Assembly: GCA_903840265.1 (NCBI GenBank)
Contig: CAIMFH010000177.1
Span: 1-64,000, forward strand
Length of the DNA stretch: 64,000 nt
Direction: 5' to 3'
Source of the DNA: an uncultured Schlesneria sp.
Lineage (GTDB): Bacteria; Planctomycetota; Planctomycetia; Planctomycetales; Planctomycetaceae
Shown here piece after piece: positions 6,814 through 40,903 of this stretch; position 1 is the stretch's first letter, and every line of letters begins with the position of its first letter. The notes beneath the pieces are model-generated. The model was not told the DNA's origin, did not search any database, and saw nothing but the letters and a program-made list of their open reading frames with translations. The translations under genes and the position numbers were made by a program.

Positions 6814-8013
6814 ATGGCACTCGAAACGACTGTGAAAATCGCCATCAATGATGACGACGCAATTCGTCGAGTCATGACACTCATGTCAATCCCCGGACGC
6901 AGCCGTGAAGAGTCGCAGGTCACCGCGTTCGTTCGCGAGCAACTGCAGGAAGCAGGCGTGCCGGCGGCTTGCATGGAACTGGACACTGCCAATCGTCGAA
7001 TCCCAAATGGGGGTGAAAACGGCAATCTGATCGTCAAGATCCCGGGGACCAAACGCGGTCCTCGCCGCCTGCTCATGGCCCACCTGGACACCGTCCCAAT
7101 TTGCGTCGGCTGCAAACCGGTACGTGACAAGGACGCAATTCGATCCTCAGATGCGTCCACAGGCCTGGGCGGGGACGATCGTGCTGGGGTTGCCGTCGTG
7201 ATGACAACGGCCATCGAACTCATCAAACAGAAGATCCCACACCCTCCGCTGACGCTGCTGTTTGCAGTGCAAGAGGAAATCGGACTTTACGGTGCCCGCT
7301 ACGTGTCGACGAAATCGCTGGGAGCCCCCAAGCTGTGCTTCAATTGGGATGGTGGCAACCCTTCTTTCGTTAATGTTGGAGCGACTGGGGATTACGGGAT
7401 CGATATCGAAATTGAGGGACTCGCAAGCCATGCAGGAGTCCATCCCGAAAAGGGGGTCAGCGCCATCGCCATCGCGGCGTTAGCGATTGCCGACCTGACC
7501 CAGAACGGCTGGCATGGATTGATCAAAAAAGGCCGTAACACGGGCACGAGCAATGTCGGAATAATTGCTGGGGGCGAGGCGACTAATGTGGTCACCCCCT
7601 CGCTGAAGCTTCGGGCTGAAGCCCGCAGTCACGACCCCGTCTTTCGGAAACGAATCGTTGCTGCGTATCAAAAGGCGTTCGAAAAGGCAGCGAAATCAGT
7701 CAAATCAACGAATGGTACTGCCGGTACGGCAAGGTTCAAAGCAGAGTTAAAGTACGAATCGTTTCGACTGAATGAAGACGAACCGGTCGTTTCGCTCGCA
7801 AAACAAGCGGTTGCAGCCGTCGGTCTCTCTCCTCAGCTCTATGTCGGAAACGGCGGCTTGGACGCCAACTGGATGTTTGCCCACGGGCTGCCCACAGTGA
7901 CACTTGGGTGCGGCCAGAACGATATTCACACGGTCCGAGAATGGTTGAATGTCCCTCATTTTCTGACAGCCTGTCGAATCGGGTTATTGCTGGGGTCTGG
8001 TCAACTGGGATAA
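6814..8013 (+). CDS. M20-family metallopeptidase (PepT-like)
   Basis: A 399-residue cytoplasmic zinc peptidase. Metal-ligand motifs appear in family order: MAHLDTVP (first His and Asp near residue 90), GGDDRAGVAVV (bridging Asp), the general-base pair in AVQEEIGLYGA, the Asp in FNWDGG, and the late His in CGQNDIHTVREW near the C-terminus. A dimerisation domain (DIEIEGLASHAGVHPEKGVS) sits in the middle. The layout fits tripeptide aminopeptidase-like M20 enzymes acting on short peptides; the exact substrate is uncertain. AAGGAATG lies just upstream of the start region. It is transcribed in the same direction as ispA-dxs but separated by about 165 bases. Confidence 0.88.
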   Translation: MALETTVKIAINDDDAIRRVMTLMSIPGRSREESQVTAFVREQLQEAGVPAACMELDTANRRIPNGGENGNLIVKIPGTKRGPRRLLMAHLDTVPICVGCKPVRDKDAIRSSDASTGLGGDDRAGVAVVMTTAIELIKQKIPHPPLTLLFAVQEEIGLYGARYVSTKSLGAPKLCFNWDGGNPSFVNVGATGDYGIDIEIEGLASHAGVHPEKGVSAIAIAALAIADLTQNGWHGLIKKGRNTGTSNVGIIAGGEATNVVTPSLKLRAEARSHDPVFRKRIVAAYQKAFEKAAKSVKSTNGTAGTARFKAELKYESFRLNEDEPVVSLAKQAVAAVGLSPQLYVGNGGLDANWMFAHGLPTVTLGCGQNDIHTVREWLNVPHFLTACRIGLLLGSGQLG

Positions 8014-8178
8014 ACTTTGCGGAAGAGTCAAGCCAAGAACTGCCAAACCAGGTGGCTTCCCCTTTGCGCCGGGGATCAGCAGCGGTAACATGTGACGCCA
8101 TTGGAAGCAACGTTCCAGCCGCGTGATGTTTCGCGGCGTGCAGGAACGACGAATTCACGCAAGGACGCGGAAGCTGGC

Positions 8179-9117
8179 ATGTCAATTCCGGGGAACATCC
8201 TCGAATCCGATCTTGGTGGACTGCGCGAGCGAGTCAACCAACGGCTGGCGGAATACATCGCTCCGACCGCATTCACTTCGTCAGCCGACTGCCCGTTGCG
8301 ACTCCGCGAATCGATGGCTCATAGCCTGCTGGCCGGGGGCAAGAGACTTCGACCTCTCATGGTCCTGCTGACCGCGGAAGCCTGTGGCGGAAGCGTGGAA
8401 GCGGCTCTTCCCGCCGCCTGTGCGATCGAAATGGTGCATACCTACTCGTTGATCCATGACGACCTGCCCGCCATGGACAATGACGATTTTCGCCGCGGTC
8501 GGCCCACGAATCACAAAGTGTTTGGCGATGCGATGGCGATTCTCGCTGGGGACGCACTGCTGACGTTGGCCTTCGAAGTCATCGCCGAACACACTCAGCC
8601 CGCCACTGTGGCTGCTGCCTGCTGTGCCGACTTGGCCAGCGCTTCGGGATGGTGCGGAATGGTGGCGGGACAAGTTGCCGACATCGAAGCCGAGGAATCG
8701 GCTGTTCAACGTGCCGAAAAATCGGACGCCGATACCGAACTTAAACACTTGGAAGCGATTCATCGGCGCAAGACAGGCCGATTACTGACCAGTGCCGTCA
8801 CCTTGGGAGCGCGGGTTGCTCAGGCAGACCCAAAGTTGATCGCAAGTCTGTCGCAGTTCGGAAAATGTGTTGGTTTAGCCTTCCAGATTGCGGATGACTT
8901 ATTAGACGTGACGGGCGATGCGGCAAAAATTGGAAAGGGCGTTTCCAAAGATGCCGCTCGCGGAAAGATGACTTATCCAGGACTGCTGGGAACAGATGCG
9001 AGCCGGCAAAAAGCCGACGCCTTGATCGACGAAGCCTGCCAATTGCTGCAACCCTTGGGACCAAAAGGCGACAAACTTGCGGCGTTGGCTCGATTTGTGA
9101 CCCAACGCGATCACTGA
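8179..9117 (+). CDS. ispA: Short-chain polyprenyl diphosphate synthase (farnesyl/geranylgeranyl type)
   Basis: Condenses isopentenyl diphosphate with allylic diphosphates to give C15 or C20 prenyl diphosphates. The 312-residue form starting MSIPGNILES carries the first Asp-rich motif DDLPAMDNDD and the second DDLLD (in QIADDLLDVTGD), both of which bind Mg-diphosphate, plus GGKRLRPLMVLL with the IPP-binding Lys/Arg. An in-frame ATG at 8092 would add 29 residues with no family similarity. dxs follows 68 bases later. The ispA-dxs order is common in bacteria and ties this gene to the non-mevalonate isoprenoid pathway. The chain length made cannot be decided here. Confidence 0.9.
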   Translation: MSIPGNILESDLGGLRERVNQRLAEYIAPTAFTSSADCPLRLRESMAHSLLAGGKRLRPLMVLLTAEACGGSVEAALPAACAIEMVHTYSLIHDDLPAMDNDDFRRGRPTNHKVFGDAMAILAGDALLTLAFEVIAEHTQPATVAAACCADLASASGWCGMVAGQVADIEAEESAVQRAEKSDADTELKHLEAIHRRKTGRLLTSAVTLGARVAQADPKLIASLSQFGKCVGLAFQIADDLLDVTGDAAKIGKGVSKDAARGKMTYPGLLGTDASRQKADALIDEACQLLQPLGPKGDKLAALARFVTQRDH

Positions 9118-9185
9118 CTAAGACGACAGAACATTGATTCGGAAATTGTGTAACAGATCGACCGAATTTTCCGGAAAGCATTGCC

Positions 9186-11126
<1,941 letters not shown>

Positions 11127-11195
11127 CAGCAAGAATAGAGATTCGCACTTTGTGACGCGGAGCGTCGCAGGAACGCCAGAAGAAGGATCTGATGA

Positions 11196-12545
11196 ATGCA
11201 CCACTCTCGAAGTGCCTGGCTTTGCGTTGCCTTGGTTTGCCTGACAACGACGGCGCAAGCGGGCGACAAATATCGTTTCGAAGAGCCCGTCGACGACACG
11301 CGAGTATTCGGCGTGGGAACTCGCATCGACATCAACGGAAAGACCCAGCCCTCGCCGAAAGATCAGCCACTGGCACTCGTCGCCTCGGCCGCGCTGTCGT
11401 ATCGGGAGCGTCGGCTGCTCGGACCGGGAACTGACGCCGAATCGTTCCGCTCTGTTCGCGACTACGAGCAAACACTCACCGAAATCGATGCCGGTGGTCA
11501 GAAGTCGAGCGTGCAGTTAGCCGACTCACTGAAATTAATGGTCGCTCAAGGACGCGCCGATGGAGTGGAACTCTACAGCCTCGGCGGCACGTTAACCTCG
11601 AACGAACTCGATCTGCTTCGCTCCCCAGCCGACAGCCTGGCGTTGATGGCTCTGCTGCCGACGAAGGAGGTCGAAATCGGTGACAAGTGGCTTGTCCCCA
11701 CCTGGGCCTTTCAAATGCTGACGGCGATGGATGCTGTCGTGAAAGGTGAACTCGCCTGCACACTCGTCTCCGTCGAAAAGCAGATCGCCAAGATCAAGCT
11801 CGACGGCAAACTTGAAGGAGCGGCTTTGTCCGCCGTCAGCGAGATCACCGTGAACGGATACTTCGAATATGATTTGACTCAAAAATGCATTTCGCACTGC
11901 GATTTCACGCAAGTCGAAAAGCGAGGACTCGGTCCCGTCGTGCCTGCATTCGAGTTCACCGCGCGGGTCCGATTGCTTCGCAAGCCAGCTCAACTTCCCG
12001 GCCGGCTGTCGGAGAAGAAGAATATCGATCTGGCTGCTAACGAACCAAAACCGTCGGTCCGTTTTCTGCGATTCGAATCACCTTGGAACATTGGATTCGA
12101 ATATCCGCGTTACTGGCATCTCTGGAAGATCCACGACAGAGCGGCCATCTTCCGATTGATCGATGAAGGGAATTTCGTCGCCCAATGCGATCTGGCACCG
12201 CTGAATCAGGCAAAGCCGGGCGAACATCTGGCAGAAGCCGTTTTCGTCCGAGACATCCAGACTGCAATGGGCGAGCGAATTAAGTCGATGGGAACGGGCG
12301 AAGTGATCTCCACGGCAGATCGTCGCTTCATCTATCGTATTTCGGCCACGGGGGCGGAAGGGGAGCGGCAGTTGACTTGGATCTTCTACCTGATCGCCGA
12401 TCACACAGGTCGTCAGGCGTCACTCTCAGTCACGGTCGATACGGCGCTCGTCGAAACATTGGCGAATCGGGAACGGGAATTCGTCAACAATCTTCGCTTT
12501 GGGCCAGCGCCGGTGAGCCCGACGGCGAGGACGACCAGCCGATAG
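11196..12545 (+). CDS. Secreted protein of unknown function
   Basis: 449 residues with a clear signal peptide (MHHSRSAWLCVALVCLTTTAQA). The mature part begins GDKYRFEEPVDDTRVF and has no motif that I recognise. It is rich in beta-type segments and contains two Cys (CISHC). The start is set by AAGGA nine bases upstream; a nearby ATG at 11192 is in another frame. It lies 69 bases after dxs on the same strand and may be read through, but shows no sign of an isoprenoid role. The second half (LRFESPWNIGFEYPRYWHLW onward) may be a separate domain, since it resembles the lipid- or ligand-binding folds of many exported planctomycete proteins. Function is not assigned. Confidence 0.7.
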   Translation: MHHSRSAWLCVALVCLTTTAQAGDKYRFEEPVDDTRVFGVGTRIDINGKTQPSPKDQPLALVASAALSYRERRLLGPGTDAESFRSVRDYEQTLTEIDAGGQKSSVQLADSLKLMVAQGRADGVELYSLGGTLTSNELDLLRSPADSLALMALLPTKEVEIGDKWLVPTWAFQMLTAMDAVVKGELACTLVSVEKQIAKIKLDGKLEGAALSAVSEITVNGYFEYDLTQKCISHCDFTQVEKRGLGPVVPAFEFTARVRLLRKPAQLPGRLSEKKNIDLAANEPKPSVRFLRFESPWNIGFEYPRYWHLWKIHDRAAIFRLIDEGNFVAQCDLAPLNQAKPGEHLAEAVFVRDIQTAMGERIKSMGTGEVISTADRRFIYRISATGAEGERQLTWIFYLIADHTGRQASLSVTVDTALVETLANREREFVNNLRFGPAPVSPTARTTSR

Positions 12546-12782
12546 GCCGCGCGATGACGATGAGCCCTTGCGACGAGAGGAAAGTCCGTTCGCAATTGCC
12601 GCCATTGATGCGTCTGTAGGGGAGCTCTCCCCGAAATAAGCTCAGAAACGGTACTTCGACTGTAACTTCCATTCCTTACAGTTCGCAAAACCTCTCTTGT
12701 CCGGCATTCCGTGTCGAACTAACATCCCGCCGCGCTTTCGTTTGGCGTAAGTCCAAGTTCTGGTAGCCCTTCAAGGCACGGT

Positions 12783-28515: not shown

Positions 28516-29961
28516 TCAAGATTGCTTGATCTGCTGAAACGCGTCGAGTGCCGCCGCGCGGGCCTCGCCATGATCGACGATCGGATTGGGATAAGTTTTC
28601 CCCAGTGTAACGCCAGCCTTCGCCAAGACGTCCTTAGGAGCTGTCCAGGGAGCATGGAGCCATTTCGTGGGCAACTCCCTTAGTTCTGGGACCCACTGAC
28701 GAAGGTAGGCACCTGCCGCATCAAATTTTTCCGACTGCAACATGGGATTGAAGACCCGAAAATACGGCGCGGCGTCAGCCCCGCAGCCGGCACTCCATTG
28801 CCAGCCCAGGGTATTGTTCGCGAGATCAGCGTCGACCAGCGTGTCCCAGAACCAGGCGGCTCCGTGTCGCCAATGCAGTCTTAGATCCTTGACCAGAAAC
28901 GATGCGACAATCATCCGCACTCGGTTGTGCATCCAACCGGTGGCCCACAACTCGCGCATCCCGGCATCGACGATGGGATAGCCTGTTTGGCCCCGCTGCC
29001 ATGCTCGCAGCGCCTTCGGGTTCTCTTCCCAAGGAAACTTCGCGAACTCGGGCCGTAGCGGGTGATCGGTCGTGGTGGGAAAGTGGTAGAGCAGGTGATG
29101 CGCGAATTCCCGCCACCCGAGTTCCTTGAGATAAGTTTCCGCATTCGCACGGTCGTGTGTTCCCGCTTTTGGATGGGTCAGATGACGACGCACCGCATGC
29201 CAGATCATTCGTGTGCTGATCTCGCCAAAATGCAGATGCGGCGACAGTCGCGATGTCCCCACTTCCGCCGGGTGATTGCGACCCGTTTCGTAGTTGCCAA
29301 TTGCATCGTGGATAAACGACTTCAACAGAGTTGCCGCTCCGGCCGAGCCCGGTTTCCAAGCGGCCTGTAGCCCCTCGGTCCACGACCGCGTCGGTTCAAG
29401 ATGCAGAGAATCGAGGCTCGCGGATTCAGGCCATTCTTTGGGAATTGGGATTCGCGCCGGCGCAGGCTGTGGCTCGACGGGTTCTCCTTTGGCCTGACAC
29501 GCGCGCCAGAAAGCACTAAAGACCTGGTACGGACGATCTTCTTTCGTGCTCACTTCCCACGGTTCGAACAACAGACTGCCGTTAAAGCTCTCGGCGGTGA
29601 ACCCGTCCTGGCGTAACTTCGCTTTCACGATTTTATCGCGAGCGATCGACGCCGGTTCATAGCGGCGATTCCAATAGACCGCCGCCGCTTTCGTCTCTTT
29701 TGCCAGATCCAGCAAGACACTCAGACTGTTGCCAGTCCGCAGGATCAGTTTTGAATGATGCTTATGCAACAACTTATCCAACATGCCCAGTGATTGATGC
29801 AACCACCAATCACTCGCCTCTCCCGATCTCCATGCACCTTCTTCATCCGTGGCCAGGATAAAAACGGGAATGATCGGTCCCGCGGCAGCCGCAGCGAGCA
29901 ACGCTGGGTTGTCCTCCAGGCGCAGGTCTTGCCGAAACCAGACAATACTCGGTGAAGTCAT
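28516..29961 (-). CDS. phrB: Class I CPD photolyase (deoxyribodipyrimidine photo-lyase)
   Basis: Repairs UV-induced cyclobutane pyrimidine dimers using light. The 481 residues comprise the antenna-binding Rossmann domain starting SIVWFRQDLRLEDNPALL, the FAD-binding helical domain with TSRLSPHLHFGEIS, GWREFAHHLLY, WMHNRVRMIVASFLVKDL and LANNTLGWQWSAGCGADAAPYFRVFNP. All key FAD-contact and Trp electron-transfer region motifs are present. I use MTSPSIVWFRQ (29961) as the start; upstream in-frame Mets add 43 residues without similarity. Two more UV- or light-related genes (tspO, uvsE) lie within 2 kb. Confidence 0.93.
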   Translation of the reverse strand: MTSPSIVWFRQDLRLEDNPALLAAAAAGPIIPVFILATDEEGAWRSGEASDWWLHQSLGMLDKLLHKHHSKLILRTGNSLSVLLDLAKETKAAAVYWNRRYEPASIARDKIVKAKLRQDGFTAESFNGSLLFEPWEVSTKEDRPYQVFSAFWRACQAKGEPVEPQPAPARIPIPKEWPESASLDSLHLEPTRSWTEGLQAAWKPGSAGAATLLKSFIHDAIGNYETGRNHPAEVGTSRLSPHLHFGEISTRMIWHAVRRHLTHPKAGTHDRANAETYLKELGWREFAHHLLYHFPTTTDHPLRPEFAKFPWEENPKALRAWQRGQTGYPIVDAGMRELWATGWMHNRVRMIVASFLVKDLRLHWRHGAAWFWDTLVDADLANNTLGWQWSAGCGADAAPYFRVFNPMLQSEKFDAAGAYLRQWVPELRELPTKWLHAPWTAPKDVLAKAGVTLGKTYPNPIVDHGEARAAALDAFQQIKQS

Positions 29962-30145
29962 GCTGAAGCTCATAGGCGACCAAAATGCCCGCATCGCGAC
30001 GGGTAAGACGCAAATGATCATATCAGACAGGTTTATGCGCAGCACACTCGGCGAGTTGATCTTGACCTTGACGCGGGAATCCAGATACATCCTGCGGAGC
30101 TTAGACTTTCAACTGTGTGAAGGTCTGGCATGTGCAGGAGAGATC

Positions 30146-30949
30146 ATGGCGATTGTGAACGAACCGCAGAGTCGAAATCGAACCTCCAGTTCCTCGATTT
30201 CTGAATCGACATCTCGCCAAACGAGGCCCGTCGAAATGGCGATGCCCGGCGTGCATTCCGGGGCACATCGCTTGTTGTCGCAGCTTCCGCGGGGAACGCT
30301 CGCCGATTTGGGAGCAGGGCAGGGGGCCCTCAGCGTTTGGGCTCGAGATGCCGGCTTTCAGACAACCGCAGTCGATTTTAACGAAGGAAACTTCGTTGCC
30401 GATTCAATCAACTTCGTGCAGGCCGATCTCAACAATCCGCTGCCGATCAAAGACGACTCGTTCGACGTTGTGGCCGCACTCGAAGTCATCGAGCACCTGG
30501 AAAACAGCTACGCACTCTTGCGCGAGATTACCAGAATTCTCAAGCCGGGCGGATACGCCGTCGTCTCGACTCCGAACGAGTCGTGCCTCGCTGCAAGGAT
30601 GTCCTATCTGACGAGTGGCTTCTATTCGGACGCGGCCTACGTCATGCGAGTCCCCGGCCCCGGCGACTTCTACAACCCACACGTCAATTGCCTGCCATTG
30701 CCGACACTCGAATATGCATGGCGGCGCGCGGGCCTGAAGATGGAAAAGTTCGAAGTCAGCCGCTACCGACCATTGGCGTGGATGTTGTGGCCGCTATTGG
30801 CTCCGATACAATGGCTGAAACTCGCCTCGCGTCATCACAAGCAGAAGCACGCCGATCGAGACACCGAACAAGCGGTCTACCGACTGATGAACGATCCTCG
30901 AGTACTGACCGGCCGCATTCTGGTCTTCTTGCTGCGCAAGCCCGCTTAA
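30146..30949 (+). CDS. SAM-dependent methyltransferase (Methyltransf_11/UbiE-like)
   Basis: 267 residues starting MAIVNEPQSRN after AGGAGAG. Motif I is LADLGAGQGALSVWA, followed by TTAVDFNE, DSFDVVAALEVIEHLE and LKPGGYAVVSTPNE, the standard class I SAM fold. The C-terminal part (PLLAPIQWLKLASRHHKQKH) is hydrophobic then basic and may lie at the membrane. The substrate is unknown. The frame is open far upstream, antisense to phrB, but nothing there resembles the family. It is divergent from phrB and precedes tspO on the same strand. Confidence 0.85.
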   Translation: MAIVNEPQSRNRTSSSSISESTSRQTRPVEMAMPGVHSGAHRLLSQLPRGTLADLGAGQGALSVWARDAGFQTTAVDFNEGNFVADSINFVQADLNNPLPIKDDSFDVVAALEVIEHLENSYALLREITRILKPGGYAVVSTPNESCLAARMSYLTSGFYSDAAYVMRVPGPGDFYNPHVNCLPLPTLEYAWRRAGLKMEKFEVSRYRPLAWMLWPLLAPIQWLKLASRHHKQKHADRDTEQAVYRLMNDPRVLTGRILVFLLRKPA

Positions 30950-31069
30950 GTCACGCTCTTAATTGGTCTGGCCTTCGAGATCGCGATAAAACAGCTCTAC
31001 GGCACGGCAATCGCTGCTTCCTTTTCGCGAGTCGAAATTGAGCACATCAGCAATTGAGTGAGTAGAATT

Positions 31070-31474
31070 ATGCCTTGGATTGAATGGTATAACCATTTAG
31101 CAAAGCCTGCCTGGACCCCGTCCCCATCGACGATCAGTGTGATCTGGACGATCCTGTACCCGTTCATTTTGTTGACATTCGGGTTCGTGTTTGTACAGGC
31201 CTACCGTCGTAAAGTCGCTTCTGCTGTGGTGTGGCCATTTGCGATTAACCTGATCGCGAATCTGTTGTTCATGCCGATCTTCGTTGGCCTGCGAAACGTT
31301 CCGCTGGCCGCGCTGGATATAATCATTGTGTGGATCACCATCGTCTGGTGCATGGTTGCAATCTGGGCGTTTTATCGTTGGGTGGCGCTAGCTCAAATCC
31401 CGTATTTGCTCTGGGTTTCAACCGCCACGATCTTGCAGCTATCCATTCTCCTGATGAATTGGAAGAGTACGTGA
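31070..31474 (+). CDS. tspO: TspO/MBR-family membrane protein
   Basis: 134 residues, five hydrophobic helices. Family landmarks are LAKPAWTPSPSTISVIWTIL near the N-terminus (the K-P-x-W-x-P and W-x-x-L-Y pattern), AINLIANLLF, and ALAQIPYLLWVSTATILQL with the A-x-x-x-P-Y-x-x-W motif. TspO proteins bind tetrapyrroles and take part in light- or stress-dependent regulation or porphyrin handling. Its TGA overlaps the GTG start of uvsE (GTGA), so the two are translationally coupled. A GTG at 31058 is an alternative start. Confidence 0.85.
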   Translation: MPWIEWYNHLAKPAWTPSPSTISVIWTILYPFILLTFGFVFVQAYRRKVASAVVWPFAINLIANLLFMPIFVGLRNVPLAALDIIIVWITIVWCMVAIWAFYRWVALAQIPYLLWVSTATILQLSILLMNWKST

Positions 31475-32385
31475 TTCGGCTGGGGCTTTGCTGCATCTTC
31501 CGCGATGAGCCAATTAAGTTCAGCACGACGACGGCCGCCGCGATTGGACGCATGGCTCGTCCTCTCGCCTTGGTAAAGTTATCAGCCCTCTGCTCGGCAA
31601 ACGCTGATGCACTCCTTGCGGCACTAAAGTTTTGCGCGAAACATGGGATCGGCTGTTTCCGTGTGAACAGCCAGATCCTGCCGATTAAGACTCATCCCAC
31701 GGCTGGCTACGATATCGGCGACCTTCCTGATTCAGACGCGATTGTCGAACGATTTCGAGAATGCAAAACCTTTGCCGAGCAGCACCATTTGCGGACATGC
31801 TTCCATCCCGATCAGTTTGTCGTGTTGAACTCTCAACGACCGGAAGTCGTCGAAGCATCAATTCGCGAATTGGAGTATCAAGCGGAAGTCGCCGAATGGA
31901 TTGGTGCCGATGTCATCAACATTCATGGTGGCGGCGCATTCGGGGATAAAGCGAAAGCAATTGCCGACTTCGCGAAGTCGCTCGATCGTTTGTCATCTCG
32001 TGTGAGAGATCGGCTCACCGTCGAGAACGATGACAAGATATTTGCCCCTGCAGACCTGTTGCCCGTGTGTCGCGCGGCGGGCATCCCGCTGGTCTACGAT
32101 GTTCATCACCATCGATGTCATCGCGATGAACTCTCCGAATCTGCGGCGACGGAACAAGCGATCGAAACTTGGAATCGCGAGCCATTGTTTCACATCTCCA
32201 GTCCGCTGGAAGGATGGAGCGGCCCCAAACCCGCACGTCATCATGACTTTATCGACATCAAAGACTTTCCCGATTGTTGGCGTCACCAGAAGTTGACTAT
32301 TGAAGTGGAAGCAAAGGCGAAAGAATTAGCCGTCATGAGATTGAAAAATGACCTGAAAAAGTCGAATACCAAAAAAACGCGTTAG
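31471..32385 (+). CDS. uvsE: UV DNA damage endonuclease
   Basis: Nicks DNA 5' of UV photoproducts and other helix-distorting lesions. The 304 residues start at a GTG (VIRLGLCCIF) coupled to tspO, with GGAAG about ten bases upstream. The UvdE TIM-barrel metal-site motifs are visible: CFHPDQFVVLNSQ, NIHGGGAFGDK, RLTVENDDK, LVYDVHHHRCHRD and PARHHDFID. Length matches bacterial UvsE. With phrB nearby it gives the cell two independent routes for UV-lesion repair. Confidence 0.93.
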   Translation: MIRLGLCCIFRDEPIKFSTTTAAAIGRMARPLALVKLSALCSANADALLAALKFCAKHGIGCFRVNSQILPIKTHPTAGYDIGDLPDSDAIVERFRECKTFAEQHHLRTCFHPDQFVVLNSQRPEVVEASIRELEYQAEVAEWIGADVINIHGGGAFGDKAKAIADFAKSLDRLSSRVRDRLTVENDDKIFAPADLLPVCRAAGIPLVYDVHHHRCHRDELSESAATEQAIETWNREPLFHISSPLEGWSGPKPARHHDFIDIKDFPDCWRHQKLTIEVEAKAKELAVMRLKNDLKKSNTKKTR

Positions 32386-35431: not shown

Positions 35432-35704
35432 ATGTCTCAAGCGATCGTTGATCCCGCCGAGTTGCGCCGTTTCGCCGGAATGCTGCGAGAATTCAATAAT
35501 GACCTCCAGTCACGGCTCAGCACCGTGTCCGGGCAACTCAATTCACTCAGCCAAAGCTGGCGAGATCAGGAACATCTGAAATTCGCCGAGGAGTTTGGCC
35601 AGCACTTGAAATTGCTCAGTCGATTTGTCGAAGCCAACGAAAACCACGTGCCGTATCTGCTGCGGAAGGCCGAGCGGATCGAAGAATACATGCAACAGCG
35701 CTGA
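35432..35704 (+). CDS. WXG100-family (Esx-like) small secreted-substrate candidate
   Basis: 90 residues, predicted as two helices joined by a turn with SQSWRDQEHLKFAEEFGQ. This matches the WXG100 layout (helix, W-x-G/D turn near residue 45, then a helix with F and E at fixed spacing as in W-x-x-x-x-x-x-x-F). There is no signal peptide and no Cys, as for ESAT-6/YukE-like proteins exported by type VII machinery. It is the first gene of a four-gene operon ending in an FtsK/EssC-type ATPase. The Gly of WXG is Asp here. Start MSQAIVDPAE chosen by family length; GAGAA is the only SD-like sequence. Confidence 0.78.
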   Translation: MSQAIVDPAELRRFAGMLREFNNDLQSRLSTVSGQLNSLSQSWRDQEHLKFAEEFGQHLKLLSRFVEANENHVPYLLRKAERIEEYMQQR

Positions 35705-35730
35705 TCTCGATAACAGAGTAAGGAGGGATC

Positions 35731-36363
35731 ATGCCTGGCCCCGGTAATGCCAATGTTCACTCGCTGGACGCACTGCGTGATGTCCGTTTGGCGCTGATGT
35801 CCTTCGGCGAGCGAACCGGAACCGCGTTAAGCGAACTCCGGTCCAAGATTGATCGCACGTTGGCCTGGCTCGAACAGGATCGGCCCCTTTACTGGCGTGA
35901 GCAAGAGCGAGAAGCTTACGACGGAGTCTCCAGCACGCGCATCGCTTACGAAACGTGCCGCATGCGGACGGTTGGTGGCAGACATTCAGAATGCATTGAA
36001 GAAAAGATCGCCCACCAACGAGCCAAGGTTCGTCTGCAGTTCTGCCAGCACAAGTGCGAAGTGGTCCGCCGATGGACGGCCGAAGCGGGACAGCAATCTG
36101 ATGAATATCGCGGCCGCTCGGGACCACTGCAGCGTTGCCTGGAAGAGGAAGTTCCGAATCTGATCGCGGCACTCGGACGGATGATTGAATCGCTGGAAGC
36201 CTATGCGGATATCCGTTCGGAAAACGAAGAGGCCGCAGTTTCGCTCGGCAATGACGAAGACAAAGATGCGGAAGAAGAAGGCAAATCCCCAGCGAAGTTG
36301 GCAACAGAAGAATCACCATCTGTAGCAGGGGGTCAAACAGACTCCTCACATCTTAAAGTTTGA
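35731..36363 (+). CDS. Unknown helical protein of the type VII-like operon
   Basis: 210 residues preceded by a perfect AAGGAGGG. The first 160 residues are predicted mostly helical and highly charged, with two Trp in LAWLEQDRPLYWREQEREAY and Cys residues at CRMRTVGGRHSEC and QFCQHKCEVV. The last 45 residues are acidic and low in complexity (NDEDKDAEEEGKSPAKLATEE), probably disordered. No family is recognised. The position between two Esx-like genes suggests a chaperone, adaptor or substrate of the secretion ATPase; this is inference from context only. Confidence 0.75.
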   Translation: MPGPGNANVHSLDALRDVRLALMSFGERTGTALSELRSKIDRTLAWLEQDRPLYWREQEREAYDGVSSTRIAYETCRMRTVGGRHSECIEEKIAHQRAKVRLQFCQHKCEVVRRWTAEAGQQSDEYRGRSGPLQRCLEEEVPNLIAALGRMIESLEAYADIRSENEEAAVSLGNDEDKDAEEEGKSPAKLATEESPSVAGGQTDSSHLKV

Positions 36364-36374
36364 TACGAGATATC

Positions 36375-36605
36375 ATGGCACTCGGCAGCTTGATCGACGG
36401 TGCGGGACAAATCAAAACGGCGGCAGACCGATTGGAAGAGGTCTGGGCCATCGCGCGGTCGTCGTGGAATGATTCGGTCAGCCAGACACTTGAAGAAGAA
36501 CACATCGAACCGCTGTTGCTGCAAGTGCGAACAACGCTGGATGCTATAGCCCGATTGAACGGCGTGCTGATTAAAGCCTGCCGCGAATGCGAGGATCGCG
36601 AGTGA
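36375..36605 (+). CDS. Second small Esx-like helical protein
   Basis: 76 residues, MALGSLIDGAGQIKTAADRL then AIARSSWNDSVSQTLEEEHI, a helix, a Trp-containing turn (W-N-D) and a second helix. The plan resembles a shortened WXG100 protein and may partner the 90-residue protein as EsxA/EsxB-type pairs do, although similarity is weak. It starts 11 bases after the 210-residue gene and its stop overlaps the ATPase start (GTGA at 36602-36605), so expression is coupled to the ATPase. Confidence 0.72.
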   Translation: MALGSLIDGAGQIKTAADRLEEVWAIARSSWNDSVSQTLEEEHIEPLLLQVRTTLDAIARLNGVLIKACRECEDRE

Positions 36606-39600
36606 ATACAAGTACGGAATTGACGGTCGAACGCGAACGACAACTGGTCAAGCAACTGCTGGATCTGGTTGCGGACCGTTCACGTCGCGAGGACGAGATC
36701 GAATCTCGACACGCCTCAGAGATCTCCGCGGAAGAAAAGCAATATCAGCAAGTCTTCCAGATGCTGACGGAGAACTACGAGTCTGAATTCGCATCTCGCC
36801 AGCAGTCTTACAGCGCCGAACAGATGGCCATTGAGGAATACTGGAACGCCGAATCGGCAACGGTTCAGAAGCAATTCGAACTCACAACTCAACAGATTGG
36901 TGAGCACTGGCAGACAGAGAAGGATGCCGCACAGAAGGAATACGACGATGCGGGCTGGTTGCTGGCATCGTTACTCGACGGAGACACAACCGATAGCCCG
37001 CTGTCGCGACTGCAAGCGATCACGTCTGGCATGGCAGCCAGTCGAACCGAGTTAGAAACTTCGCTGACAACACTCGACGGCTGGTATCGCACGGCCACAG
37101 TCTTCTTGCAGCGATGTCGTCTGCTGGGCGAGGCGACGATGCCGCCGCCATCGGTACTGCCACTCGATCTGGCGGGCTTGCATCAGTCTTGCGTGGAGGC
37201 AACGCGAGCGGCCGAACCGATCCAGCGACGACTGATGAGCCGACTCCTGCCGCAGGTCTTTCGCGGATTCTGGCCGCTGGTCGCGTTCGTGATCTGCTGC
37301 GGAGTCTTGTCCTCGCTGGTCTGGATGATCCCCCCCAAGTTAATCGGTCTGAAGATTGATCCCGCGGCGCGAGATTGGGTCTGGATCGCCAGTGGTGCTG
37401 GATCAGCGATCGCTTTGGTCGTCATGTTTCTGCTGCATCTGTATGCGGGCCATCAAACGCTGCCCGACTATGACAAATTGCTGCAACTGGCCACAGACGC
37501 CGACACGGCATTTCATCGCTGGACCGTTGCCGCGGAACGAGATTGTGAAACTCAAAAATCCGAACTACTGCAACTGGATGAGTCTCGAGAACGGAAACGA
37601 GTGGCGGCGGTCGCACATTCGGATGCCAAACTCCGTTCGCGCCTTAACGCAGCCGCGGGACTGCGGGATGCGGAACTGGATGCGGCGCAGGCCACTTTCC
37701 CCACACGACTGGCCGAGATCGAAACGATCTCGGCTCGACAGCTTCAGGAGTCCGAGGCCAGGTACACCACGGGACGCCAGGATTTGCTTCTGCAGCGGGA
37801 GCGAGACTTCCGTAACCTCCAGGCAGAATTCGATCAACGGGTTGGGGAAAGTCGCCTCCAGTACCAGCAGAGCTGGAATCAACTGGTTCGAGACTGGCAC
37901 GGTGGACTGCGTGAAACAGGTACTGCCGCCGATGCCATGTGTGATGCGTTGCGACGGAATTGCCCAAAGTGGTCGACGGTCCTCGGCGGGTGGTTGGAAT
38001 CACGGATCCCCCAAGATCATGGTCCCGCCGCCAGCGACAACATCTTGACCATGGGTCGCATCGTCGCCGATTTAGCCACCATTCCCAACGGACTATCGAC
38101 TGACCCTCGTTTGACCGCCGAAAGAAGCCAGTTCGAGTTTCCACTGCTGCTGTCGTTGGCGGACAAGCCGTCGCTGGTCGTTCGTTCCAAAGGAGAGAAT
38201 CGAGCGGAAGCGATGCAGGTTCTGCAGACGGCAATGCTGCGATACCTGACGACACTTCCTCCAGGCAAGATCCGCTTCACGATCCTCGATCCTGTCGGCC
38301 TGGGTGCCAACTTCGCTTCGTTCATGCACCTGACCGACATCGACGAGTTGATGATCACAAGCCGCATCTGGACCGAGCCTGCACAGATCGAGAAGCGTCT
38401 GGCGGATTTGACCGAGCACATGGAAAACGTGCTGCAGACCTATTTGCGAAATGAATACGCAACACTCGACGACTACAACCGCGAAGCGGGCGAAGTCGCC
38501 GAGCCCTACCGCATTCTGGTCGTCGCCAACTTTCCCACCAATATTACCGAGATCGCATTGCGGCGACTGGTCAGCATTGCCGAAGGTGGCGTCAAATGCG
38601 GTGTCTTCCTGCTGATGAGCGTCGATGAATCGCAACAGCTTCCACGCGGCTTTTCCCTCGCCGATATCGAACGCCATGCCACTGTTCTGCGTCTGGCGTC
38701 AACGACAAAGGTCAACCAGCAGGGGTCATCACTGAATGACCTCTCGCTCGTTCCGTCAGCGCATGCAGAACTTGCCCAATCAATTCCCACTCGAAATGGA
38801 ACGACGGTTCCAACACGGTCCTTAACTTCGACTTTCCGTCTGGCGGATCCAGTCCTCGGCGATTGGCCTCTTGTGCTGGATGAGCCGCCTGGGGCAGAAG
38901 AATTCGGCCAGATTGTTCGTCGCGCCGGACAATTGGCTAAGTCAGTACGCCGAGTGGAAGTCCCGTTCGAACGAGTGATGCCCCCCGCCAACGAATTCTG
39001 GACTTCCAGTACCCGAACAGGATTGGATGTTCCCATCGGACGTGCCGGGGCCACCAAACTGCAGTACCTCCGATTGGGAAAAGGAACCTCCCAGCATGTG
39101 CTGATCGCTGGTAAAACCGGTTCGGGAAAGTCATCCCTGCTGCACGCGTTGATCACCAATGCGGCACTGCATTACAGCCCGGACGAAGTCGAGTTCTACC
39201 TGATCGACTTCAAGAAGGGGGTCGAATTCAAGACTTACGCCACGCACCGCCTGCCACACGCCCGTGTGATCGCCATCGAAAGCGATCGCGAGTTTGGCGT
39301 CAGCGTTCTGCAGCGGTTGGACAATCTGCTCAAAGATCGCGGCGAAATGTTCCGGCGAGTCGGCGTGCAGGACTTGCAGGGCTGTCGGGATGCGCGGCCG
39401 AACGAACCTTTGCCGCGAGTCCTTCTGGTGATCGACGAATTCCAGGAATTCTTCATCGAAGACGATTCTCTGTCACAGTCTGCCGCCTTGTTGTTTGATC
39501 GACTGATCCGGCAAGGGCGTGCGTTTGGAATACACGTGCTGCTGGGCAGTCAGACCCTGGCCGGGGCCTATTCCCTGGCTCGCAGCACGCTAGGACAGAT

Positions 39601-40903
39601 CGCCGTTCGGATCGCACTGCAATGCAGCGACACCGATGCTCACTTGATTCTAAGCGAAGAGAACACCGCCGCGCGTCTGCTGACGCGGCCCGGTGAAGCG
39701 ATCTACAACGATGCGAACGGCCTTGTCGAAGGGAACCATCCATTTCAAGTTGTCTGGCTGGACGATACCCAGCGAGAAACGTATCTCGATTGGATGCGAC
39801 CCTGGGCAGAAGAGTTTCATAAGCGTTTGAATGGAACTCATTCATCGACCGACGAATCCCGCTGGCCCGAGCCTGTCGTGTTCGAGGGCAATACTGCTGC
39901 CGATCCGCTCTTAAATCCGAATGTGCTGGATGCCGTGCAGCAATTGACGGCGCCATCGAATAGAAAGGTGACATCTTCGAGTGCCCGTTCTTGCTGGCTT
40001 GGTGAGGCAGTCGCACTCACGGGCCCCACAGAATTGCAGTTCGGTCCTCGCGATGGAGGACCATTCCTGATCATTGGTCGAGACGAAGACGCCGCGTTGG
40101 GTATCTTGTCGAACAGCATCCTGGCGCTGGCCGGGCAGGGAACTGAACCACCTCGCTTTGTCATCCTGGATGGCAGTCTGCCCGACAGTCTGGCGGCCAA
40201 AACATGGCGCTCGCTGGCTTCGCTGATTCCATCGTTGAACGTCGTCAATCCTCGCGATTCCGCGGCGGCGTTGCGGCAGGTCGTCGACGACATGCATGCT
40301 CGACAAGACGATACAGCGCCGCCGACGTTTGTAATCGCTTTCGATCTCTCGCGGTTTCGCGACCTTCGCAAATCCGATGACGAATTCGGCGGGTTCGGTG
40401 GCTTCGAGAAGGAGAAGACTGTCAGCCCTTCGGCCCTGTTCAGTGAAATCGTCAAAGATGGTCCGGCAGCGAGCGTCTTCGCGTTCACGTGGTGCGACGG
40501 CTTGCAGACAGCTCAGCGCTGGCTCGGCCGAGAGCTGCTGGGGAGATTTGAAATCCGCGTTTTGTTCGCCATGAACGCGAATGATTCCAGCAACCTGATC
40601 GACAGCCCGGTCGCGGGACGATTGGGCCCGAACCGTGCGCTGCTGTACCGCGGTGATCTCGGAACGATCGATAAATTTCGGCCGTACAAGTCGCTCTCTC
40701 CGGGCTGGTTCGAAGAACTTCGGCATCAGCCTTTAACGACGGAATCAAGTGAATTCGTCGAAGGGATCGCGGAAGATGTCGAGGCAGCTCCCCTCGACAT
40801 CGAACAACCTGCGATGATTGAGTCCGATTCAACAGAACCAGCGCATCAAGAATCCGATGCCAGTGATACCTGGACGGACCTTGATCAACTAAACGTAAGC
40901 TAA
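36602..40903 (+). CDS. FtsK/SpoIIIE-type ATPase of a type VII-like secretion system (EssC/EccC-like)
   Basis: 1433 residues from a GTG start coupled to the previous gene. Order of parts: N-terminal coiled coil (1-140, Glu/Gln-rich), two membrane helices (about 220-240 and 258-280), a second coiled coil (about 290-440), a first degenerate ATPase-like module (about 508-706), a canonical FtsK/SpoIIIE module with Walker A GKTGSGKS (about 837-844) and Walker B VLLVIDEFQEF (about 940), a third module without a P-loop (about 1146-1376, IIGRDEDAALGILSN in its place), and an acidic tail. Firmicute EssC carries FHA domains and actinobacterial EccC lacks the long coils. The product would be the motor of the secretion system in the inner membrane. 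Confidence 0.82.
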   Translation: MNTSTELTVERERQLVKQLLDLVADRSRREDEIESRHASEISAEEKQYQQVFQMLTENYESEFASRQQSYSAEQMAIEEYWNAESATVQKQFELTTQQIGEHWQTEKDAAQKEYDDAGWLLASLLDGDTTDSPLSRLQAITSGMAASRTELETSLTTLDGWYRTATVFLQRCRLLGEATMPPPSVLPLDLAGLHQSCVEATRAAEPIQRRLMSRLLPQVFRGFWPLVAFVICCGVLSSLVWMIPPKLIGLKIDPAARDWVWIASGAGSAIALVVMFLLHLYAGHQTLPDYDKLLQLATDADTAFHRWTVAAERDCETQKSELLQLDESRERKRVAAVAHSDAKLRSRLNAAAGLRDAELDAAQATFPTRLAEIETISARQLQESEARYTTGRQDLLLQRERDFRNLQAEFDQRVGESRLQYQQSWNQLVRDWHGGLRETGTAADAMCDALRRNCPKWSTVLGGWLESRIPQDHGPAASDNILTMGRIVADLATIPNGLSTDPRLTAERSQFEFPLLLSLADKPSLVVRSKGENRAEAMQVLQTAMLRYLTTLPPGKIRFTILDPVGLGANFASFMHLTDIDELMITSRIWTEPAQIEKRLADLTEHMENVLQTYLRNEYATLDDYNREAGEVAEPYRILVVANFPTNITEIALRRLVSIAEGGVKCGVFLLMSVDESQQLPRGFSLADIERHATVLRLASTTKVNQQGSSLNDLSLVPSAHAELAQSIPTRNGTTVPTRSLTSTFRLADPVLGDWPLVLDEPPGAEEFGQIVRRAGQLAKSVRRVEVPFERVMPPANEFWTSSTRTGLDVPIGRAGATKLQYLRLGKGTSQHVLIAGKTGSGKSSLLHALITNAALHYSPDEVEFYLIDFKKGVEFKTYATHRLPHARVIAIESDREFGVSVLQRLDNLLKDRGEMFRRVGVQDLQGCRDARPNEPLPRVLLVIDEFQEFFIEDDSLSQSAALLFDRLIRQGRAFGIHVLLGSQTLAGAYSLARSTLGQIAVRIALQCSDTDAHLILSEENTAARLLTRPGEAIYNDANGLVEGNHPFQVVWLDDTQRETYLDWMRPWAEEFHKRLNGTHSSTDESRWPEPVVFEGNTAADPLLNPNVLDAVQQLTAPSNRKVTSSSARSCWLGEAVALTGPTELQFGPRDGGPFLIIGRDEDAALGILSNSILALAGQGTEPPRFVILDGSLPDSLAAKTWRSLASLIPSLNVVNPRDSAAALRQVVDDMHARQDDTAPPTFVIAFDLSRFRDLRKSDDEFGGFGGFEKEKTVSPSALFSEIVKDGPAASVFAFTWCDGLQTAQRWLGRELLGRFEIRVLFAMNANDSSNLIDSPVAGRLGPNRALLYRGDLGTIDKFRPYKSLSPGWFEELRHQPLTTESSEFVEGIAEDVEAAPLDIEQPAMIESDSTEPAHQESDASDTWTDLDQLNVS

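What the first reader, a model, noticed from the sequence alone, without database searches (positions are those of the whole stretch)
35432..40903. Compact type VII (Esx/Yuk)-like secretion operon in a planctomycete
Seen: four tightly packed same-strand genes. A 90-residue WXG100-type helical hairpin (S-W-R-D turn), a 210-residue charged helical protein, a 76-residue protein with a W-N-D turn, and a 1433-residue protein with two membrane helices and an FtsK/SpoIIIE Walker A/B module. The last two are coupled by a GTGA overlap. Known: WXG100 proteins are exported by EssC/EccC FtsK-type ATPases in Firmicutes and Actinobacteria. Inferred: this operon is a minimal type VII-like exporter in a bacterium with an outer membrane. 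No EsaA/EssA/EssB/EccB/EccD-like partners are present, so the outer part of the channel, if any, must differ.
Basis: partly seen in the sequence, partly recalled or inferred. Interest (0 to 1): 0.82.

Follow-up and report, generated by a model that had tools for sequence, protein, structure and literature searches.

The report
Membrane-anchored type VII-like machine in planctomycetes
Four planctomycete genes encode a motor protein related to the type VII secretion motors of tuberculosis and staphylococcal bacteria plus three small helical partners, and because all four are inherited together even when scattered across the chromosome they probably form one machine that moves a small helical protein across the inner membrane of outer-membrane-bearing bacteria, which nobody has tested.

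Summary
Four packed genes (35432-40903) encode a WXG100 protein with WRD at the turn (Pfam above cut-off; nearest solved structure H. pylori HP0062), a 67+78-residue helical hairpin, a diverged second WXG100-like protein with WND, and a two-TM ATPase. The ATPase model matches EccC's DUF domain and FtsK modules; only the middle of three ATPase-fold domains keeps Walker motifs. Gene order recurs in 50 of 80 relatives. Among 244 planctomycete genomes the four genes occur in the same ones (34 have all four, singly), although in 12 of 36 they are split over the genome, so they form one obligate system. It is also in Verrucomicrobiota/Lentisphaerota, and its tree roughly follows taxonomy. The general kind is known: Zhang 2012 notes WXG plus a three-domain, middle-active ATPase in planctomycetes, and the CoCoNuT paper describes a no-TM, nuclease-bearing relative. 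In those relatives (Caballeronia, Helicobacter, Verrucomicrobiota, Lentisphaerota) the gene between the two WXG genes carries a nuclease; here it is the bare hairpin. So this is a membrane-anchored, toxin-less, single-copy variant. Export is the best guess; secretion is not shown, and YxxxD/E signals, YukC and YukD are absent.

The parts
35432..35704 (+). wxgA: 90-aa WXG100 protein, WRD at the turn (W43-R44-D45, 35558-35566)
   Evidence: PF06013 1.3e-7 above cut-off; 38 of 38 aligned family members match PF06013; best PDB profile match H. pylori HP0062, 5.7e-12
35731..36363 (+). hel: 210-aa helical protein, probable cargo or carrier subunit
   Evidence: Conserved family in 56 loci; no Pfam family; AF2 model pLDDT about 98 over most of the hairpin
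35764..36228 (+). Long helical hairpin of hel (helices 12-78 and 89-166); residues 167-210 low confidence (tail)
   Evidence: AF2 model m70b809568ab8; W55 and Y158 invariant
36375..36605 (+). wxgB: 76-aa diverged WXG100 paralogue, WND at the turn (W31-N32-D33, 36465-36473)
   Evidence: W31 and D33 invariant in 49; hhalign to wxgA probability 78.6, E 1.7e-5; 7 of 49 members match PF06013, best 7e-4; EsxA in the PDB 1.2e-3
36602..40903 (+). 1433-aa membrane-anchored EccC/EssC-type ATPase (GTG start, GTGA overlap with wxgB)
36602..37246 (+). N-terminal charged, coiled-coil-like region (about residues 1-215)
   Evidence: Sequence; low conservation but similar length before the TM pair in relatives
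37265..37330 (+). Transmembrane helix 1 (about residues 222-243)
   Evidence: Hydropathy; comparable place in relatives
37391..37459 (+). Transmembrane helix 2 (about residues 264-286)
   Evidence: Hydropathy; comparable place in relatives
37370..37960 (+). About 197-residue continuous helix (TM2 plus cytoplasmic stalk, residues 257-453)
   Evidence: AF2 model helix 62-258, offset 195; pLDDT falls to about 50 in the distal part
38030..38695 (+). Degenerate ATPase-fold domain equivalent to the EccC DUF domain (about residues 477-698)
   Evidence: VIA-align Z 15.3 to the EccC5 DUF domain 8rin, Z 14.9 to the ESX-5 pore 7b9f, Z 14.4 to B. subtilis T7bCU+DUF 9qks
38984..39721 (+). Active FtsK/SpoIIIE domain equivalent to EccC D1 (residues 795-1040)
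   Evidence: PF01580; EccCa D1; 4nh0
39110..39133 (+). Walker A GKTGSGKS (residues 837-844)
   Evidence: sequence; conserved core
39419..39439 (+). Walker B VLLVIDE (residues 940-946)
   Evidence: sequence; DEF invariant in the alignment
39881..40699 (+). C-terminal degenerate ATPase domain equivalent to EccC D2 (residues 1094-1366), no Walker A
   Evidence: VIA-align Z 21.4 to EccCb1-D2 9jv8; conservation

Best explanation
The four genes encode one obligate machine, a membrane-anchored type VII-secretion-like exporter of diderm PVC bacteria. Shown: the motor has the EccC/EssC plan (two TM helices, DUF-like domain, one active FtsK domain, one degenerate FtsK domain); two diverged WXG100 proteins and a long helical hairpin are co-inherited with it. 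Inferred: the ATPase forms a hexamer in the inner membrane; [quoted passage not shown] the degenerate C-terminal ATPase domain reads the signal, as D2/D3 do in EccC; and the active domain threads the hairpin protein, with or without wxgA, across the inner membrane. In the conflict-type relatives the same slot carries a nuclease, so the hairpin is most simply the carrier part of a cargo that here has no toxin. The fate beyond the inner membrane is unknown: periplasmic, or carried over the outer membrane by unrelated proteins.
For: EccC/EssC affinity in sequence and fold, including the DUF domain. Hydrophobic segments before Walker A in all 78 rows examined, two or more in 69. WXG100 membership of wxgA and kinship of wxgB with it. 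The same 34 of 244 genomes hold all four genes, singly; pairwise Fisher p about 1e-39 to 1e-43, uncorrected for phylogeny; 12 of 36 have them unlinked, two with all four at separate loci; 14 of 15 further genomes whose ATPase locus lacks wxgA have wxgA elsewhere. Cargo-slot nucleases in relatives: Caballeronia, Verrucomicrobiota, Helicobacter (WHH nuclease PF14414 1.1e-11 plus SUKH immunity), a ParB-like tail in Lentisphaerota.
Against: No secretion data. The YxxxD/E type VII export motif is absent: 2 of 44 hel proteins have D/E at +4 from the invariant Tyr, and wxgA ends YMQQR. No known type VII envelope partner was found. The ATPase lacks one of EccC's four NBD-like domains. A cytoplasmic helix of about 170 residues after TM2 would hold the ATPase ring far from the membrane, unlike EccC. 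Sequence homology between hel and the nuclease carriers is not established (hhalign probability 6-7%).
Confidence: 0.5

Rival explanations
1. It is a membrane-tethered but non-secreting remodelling or scaffolding machine: the ATPase on its long coiled-coil stalk pulls on or assembles hel with the WXG pair as adaptors, inside the cell (for example envelope organisation or chromosome positioning).
For: Very long helical stalk and N-terminal coiled coil; no YxxxD/E signal; no envelope partners found; single fixed subunit set without effector repertoire.
Against: DUF plus FtsK plan and WXG100 partners are otherwise features of exporters; relatives carry toxin plus immunity in the same slot.
Confidence: 0.28
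2. It is an intracellular defence or conflict module like the CoCoNuT-linked systems: WXG and ATPase deliver or control an effector when a phage or plasmid enters.
For: Nearest relatives outside the core clade sit with vWA, PP2C, kinase and CARF/Card1 nuclease genes and are described as conflict systems (PMC11090510); Phycisphaerae hel proteins carry a C-terminal Imm33-like domain.
Against: No effector domain in most hel proteins; no defence neighbours and no conserved fifth gene; tree roughly follows taxonomy and copies are single, unlike mobile defence islands; no PADLOC match to the three small proteins, and only shared ATPase-domain hits for the motor.
Confidence: 0.14
3. The motor is a DNA translocase of the FtsK/HerA family and the WXG similarity is an incidental helical-hairpin match.
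For: Highest single-domain VIA-align Z is to FtsK motor domains (24).
Against: Sequence and Foldseek place EccC/EssC far ahead; DUF-domain match; wxgA matches PF06013 in all 38 members; no FtsK gamma domain listed.
Confidence: 0.04

Closest known systems
CoCoNuT-associated / 'mobile' WXG-FtsK systems (Zhang 2012, PMC3482391 footnote 6; PMC11090510)
   Same: [quoted passage not shown] two WXG100-type proteins, one with a diverged motif; helical protein in the same cluster; planctomycetes named among holders
   Different: Those have no TM helices, a nuclease fused to the helical protein, an immunity-like gene, and vWA, kinase or CARF neighbours, and are thought mobile; the planctomycete core form has two TM helices, no nuclease, no such neighbours, single copy, and a tree roughly following taxonomy; separate clade, SH-aLRT 97 but with long branches
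T7SSa/T7SSb EccC/EssC secretion systems
   Same: Two-TM FtsK-type ATPase with DUF domain; WXG100 partner; helical-hairpin co-factors
   Different: One active plus one degenerate FtsK domain after the DUF instead of three; WRD/WND instead of WXG; no YxxxD/E; no YukC or YukD in the genome; diderm host
H. pylori HP0062 locus (PDB 3fx7)
   Same: Closest solved WXG100 relative; also WRD at the turn and clustered with an FtsK/SpoIIIE gene (PMC3397514)
   Different: Its partner genes were not examined here; a related Helicobacter plasmid locus (L088) is the no-TM, nuclease-bearing type
T7SSc-j variants (Garrett 2024, PMC11217815)
   Same: Alternative component sets around a conserved ATPase and WXG100 core
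   Different: Described only in Gram-positives and with four NTPase domains

Membership tests
Type VII secretion system (EccC/EssC + WXG100) | Two-TM ATPase with DUF and FtsK domains of EccC/EssC type | tested here: met
Type VII secretion system (EccC/EssC + WXG100) | Four ATPase-fold domains (DUF, D1-D3) | tested here: not met
   Three only: DUF-like, active, degenerate
Type VII secretion system (EccC/EssC + WXG100) | WXG100-family partner | tested here: met
   wxgA PF06013 above cut-off; 38 of 38 members match
Type VII secretion system (EccC/EssC + WXG100) | WXG tripeptide at the turn | tested here: not met
   W-R-D in wxgA, W-N-D in wxgB; W and D invariant
Type VII secretion system (EccC/EssC + WXG100) | YxxxD/E C-terminal export motif | tested here: not met
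   2 of 44 hel proteins; wxgA ends YMQQR
Type VII secretion system (EccC/EssC + WXG100) | EssB/YukC and EsaB/YukD partners | tested here: not met
   No hit in the whole genome, B. subtilis control rings
Type VII secretion system (EccC/EssC + WXG100) | EccB partner | tested here: inconclusive
   No hit, but no control genome rang either
Type VII secretion system (EccC/EssC + WXG100) | EsaA, EssA, EccD, EccE, MycP partners | not tested
   Only the operon and its flanks were looked at
Type VII secretion system (EccC/EssC + WXG100) | ATPase-dependent export of the WXG protein | not testable with these tools
   Needs experiment
CoCoNuT-type / mobile WXG-FtsK conflict system | Three ATPase-fold domains, only the middle active | tested here: met
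   description in PMC3482391 and PMC11090510
CoCoNuT-type / mobile WXG-FtsK conflict system | Two WXG100-type proteins beside the ATPase | tested here: met
   here both lack the exact WXG and keep W-x-D
CoCoNuT-type / mobile WXG-FtsK conflict system | Nuclease fused to the helical protein, with immunity or conflict neighbours | tested here: not met
   hel is hairpin plus tail; no such conserved neighbours
CoCoNuT-type / mobile WXG-FtsK conflict system | ATPase without TM helices | tested here: not met
   No relative in the core set lacks hydrophobic segments before Walker A
FtsK DNA translocase | FtsK gamma DNA-recognition domain | tested here: not met
   Not listed at E up to 10; P0004 ends in a degenerate ATPase domain plus tail

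The most novel reading that the evidence does not exclude
An old, largely vertically inherited, four-protein type VII-like translocon in diderm Planctomycetota, Verrucomicrobiota and Lentisphaerota that exports one fixed helical protein without any known envelope partner; the mobile nuclease-bearing WXG-FtsK conflict systems and this toxin-less membrane-anchored form are two branches of one family.
Probability: 0.35. Interest if true: 0.8.

Novelty: new variant of a known kind. Interest (0 to 1): 0.6.

Why it matters
Type VII secretion is studied in Gram-positive and mycolic-acid bacteria. A four-part, single-copy version in outer-membrane bacteria would be among the smallest component sets and would give a way to ask what WXG100 proteins do apart from toxin export. 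Unlinked but co-inherited genes make the part list unusually secure, and a named cultured strain with the ATPase and an unlinked wxgA (Thalassoglobus neptunius KOR42, L045) makes it testable.

Tried and rejected
PADLOC gave only shared ATPase-domain hits. Foldseek with the hel hairpin gave only generic coiled coils, none at E <= 0.001. Profile comparison of hel with the nuclease carriers was inconclusive, so their kinship is stated as positional only. A viral-contig scan with wxgA found no relative. Flank clustering found only generic planctomycete families (DUF1501-like, kinases, prepilins, ABC) at no fixed place; one subclade has a kinase-like gene directly downstream. G046's wxgB hit is the wxgA gene itself (same place), so that genome was not counted as complete. 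The first paper search (WXG100 with Planctomycetes and FtsK) found nothing; the prior notes were found through other terms. The EccB search is uninformative because no control rang.

Full report
What is there. Genes at 35432-35704, 35731-36363, 36375-36605 and 36602-40903 are confirmed with the sizes and the GTGA overlap stated. I call them wxgA, hel, wxgB and ATPase. wxgA is WXG100 by Pfam (1.3e-7, above cut-off), and all 38 aligned family members match the same model. Its turn is W-R-D; W43 and D45 are invariant. Its closest solved structure is H. pylori HP0062 (3fx7, 5.7e-12), which a review also notes as W-R-D and clustered with an FtsK/SpoIIIE gene (PMC3397514). wxgB alone hits nothing in Pfam, but its family keeps W-x-D, aligns to wxgA by profile (probability 78.6, E 1.7e-5), cross-hits wxgA in several loci and weakly matches EsxA (1.2e-3).

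The second gene. hel has no Pfam family. AF2 gives two helices of 67 and 78 residues with pLDDT about 98 over most of their length, then a low-confidence tail. Foldseek finds only generic coiled coils. In four loci (Phycisphaerae and neighbours in the tree) it carries a C-terminal Imm33-like domain (1.4e-14, 3.1e-11 and 6.9e-8 over the cut-off, one sub-threshold at 3.1e-4). An invariant Tyr158 closes the second helix, but the type VII YxxxD/E motif is not there (2 of 44).

The motor. Sequence places it with EccC/EssC: EccCa 1.2e-30 against FtsK 2.3e-5, EccC 5.5e-34 against FtsK 5e-8 among solved chains. Foldseek's first eight hits are EccC/EssC. In VIA-align, residues 445-781 match the EccC5 DUF domain (Z 15.3) and DUF regions of the ESX-5 pore and the B. 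subtilis core unit, and the C-terminal domain matches EccCb1-D2 (Z 21.4). Only the middle domain has Walker motifs. The best single-domain Z values are to FtsK itself (24), so the fold alone would not decide; sequence and the DUF domain do. I read the plan as coiled coil - two TM - long stalk - DUF - D1 (active) - D2 (degenerate), lacking D3. Hydrophobic segments precede Walker A in every one of 78 rows examined (69 with two or more by a simple hydropathy rule).

One system. In 50 of 80 loci from other genomes all four genes follow in order on one strand (my count of the listing). In one sample of 244 planctomycete genomes the ATPase is in 35, wxgA in 36, hel in 35 and wxgB in 36 (35 after removing G046, whose wxgB hit is its wxgA gene), in the same genomes; 34 hold all four. 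In 22 of 36 all are linked; in 12 they are split over two to four places (a few may be contig breaks), and in a single-contig genome (G092) all four lie hundreds of kilobases apart. 14 of 15 further genomes whose ATPase locus lacks wxgA have it elsewhere (the sixteenth handle, L038, was a linked control). Fisher p values near 1e-40 ignore shared ancestry, so the unlinked cases carry the weight. No fifth neighbour is conserved.

Spread. wxgA is in 14 of 241 genomes of the Verrucomicrobiota/Lentisphaerota sample (phylum of L081's genome, the names of the other members are not given), and three fetched loci there have the complete core order (L130-L132). The ATPase tree puts these outside nearly all planctomycetes and broadly recovers Phycisphaerae, Gemmataceae, Isosphaeraceae, Pirellulales and Planctomycetaceae groups; some labels are mixed (Pirellul needs 3 changes), so vertical inheritance with losses is likely but not proven. 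Nine of 21 genomes of the window's own family lack it.

Relatives with a toxin in the slot. On plasmids and in the Verrucomicrobiota/Lentisphaerota sample a second type has no two-TM N-terminus and a nuclease-type protein between wxgA and wxgB: Caballeronia pSBC2-5 and L128 (EVKCG restriction-endonuclease-like tail, no Pfam hit; beside vWA and CARF/Card1 genes), Helicobacter NHP19-012 (WHH nuclease 1.1e-11 plus SUKH immunity) and Lentisphaerota L123 (ParB-like tail, Pfam only 0.034). G472 holds both types. Whether hel and the helical parts of those proteins are homologous is not settled; the equivalence is positional.

Prior knowledge. Zhang et al. 2012 (PMC3482391) state in a table footnote that planctomycetes, verrucomicrobia and others have solo WXG domains with a distinct ATPase of three HerA/FtsK domains, only the middle active, and call them mobile versions of T7SS. 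PMC11090510 describes the CoCoNuT-linked version with two WXG100 proteins, a coiled-coil-nuclease and no TM. So the kind is known; what I did not find described in the held library is the membrane-anchored, nuclease-free, single-copy, co-inherited four-part form. The library lacks most subscription papers (for example Sutcliffe 2011 on WXG100 distribution), so an earlier description cannot be excluded.

How it works. My best reading is a type VII-like inner-membrane exporter for the hairpin protein with the WXG pair as targeting partners. Steps shown are homology, membrane segments, ATPase motifs and co-inheritance; hexamer, targeting and export are inferred. A non-secreting membrane machine is the main rival.

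Noticed in passing
window 28516-32385: Photolyase (PF03441/PF00875), TspO/MBR (PF03073) and UV-damage endonuclease UvdE (PF03851) genes lie close together: a light-damage repair neighbourhood.
   Followed up: partly
L059, L073, L080, L085 (hel genes): hel proteins of Phycisphaerae-like genomes carry a C-terminal Imm33-like domain, an immunity-type domain fused to a putative cargo.
   Followed up: partly
L123 (Lentisphaerota G260:C428), 7788-12617 minus strand: A second WXG-FtsK locus with two tandem wxgA genes, a ParB-like-tailed helical protein and wxgB, in a genome that also has the core type.
   Followed up: partly
L089 (Rhodococcus plasmid) and L090 (Deinococcus plasmid): Related FtsK-domain ATPase genes followed by several small uncharacterised genes, in Rhodococcus next to TerD genes.
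   Followed up: no
L021, L056, L062, L070, L074: A serine/threonine-kinase-like gene lies directly downstream of the ATPase in this subclade only.
   Followed up: no
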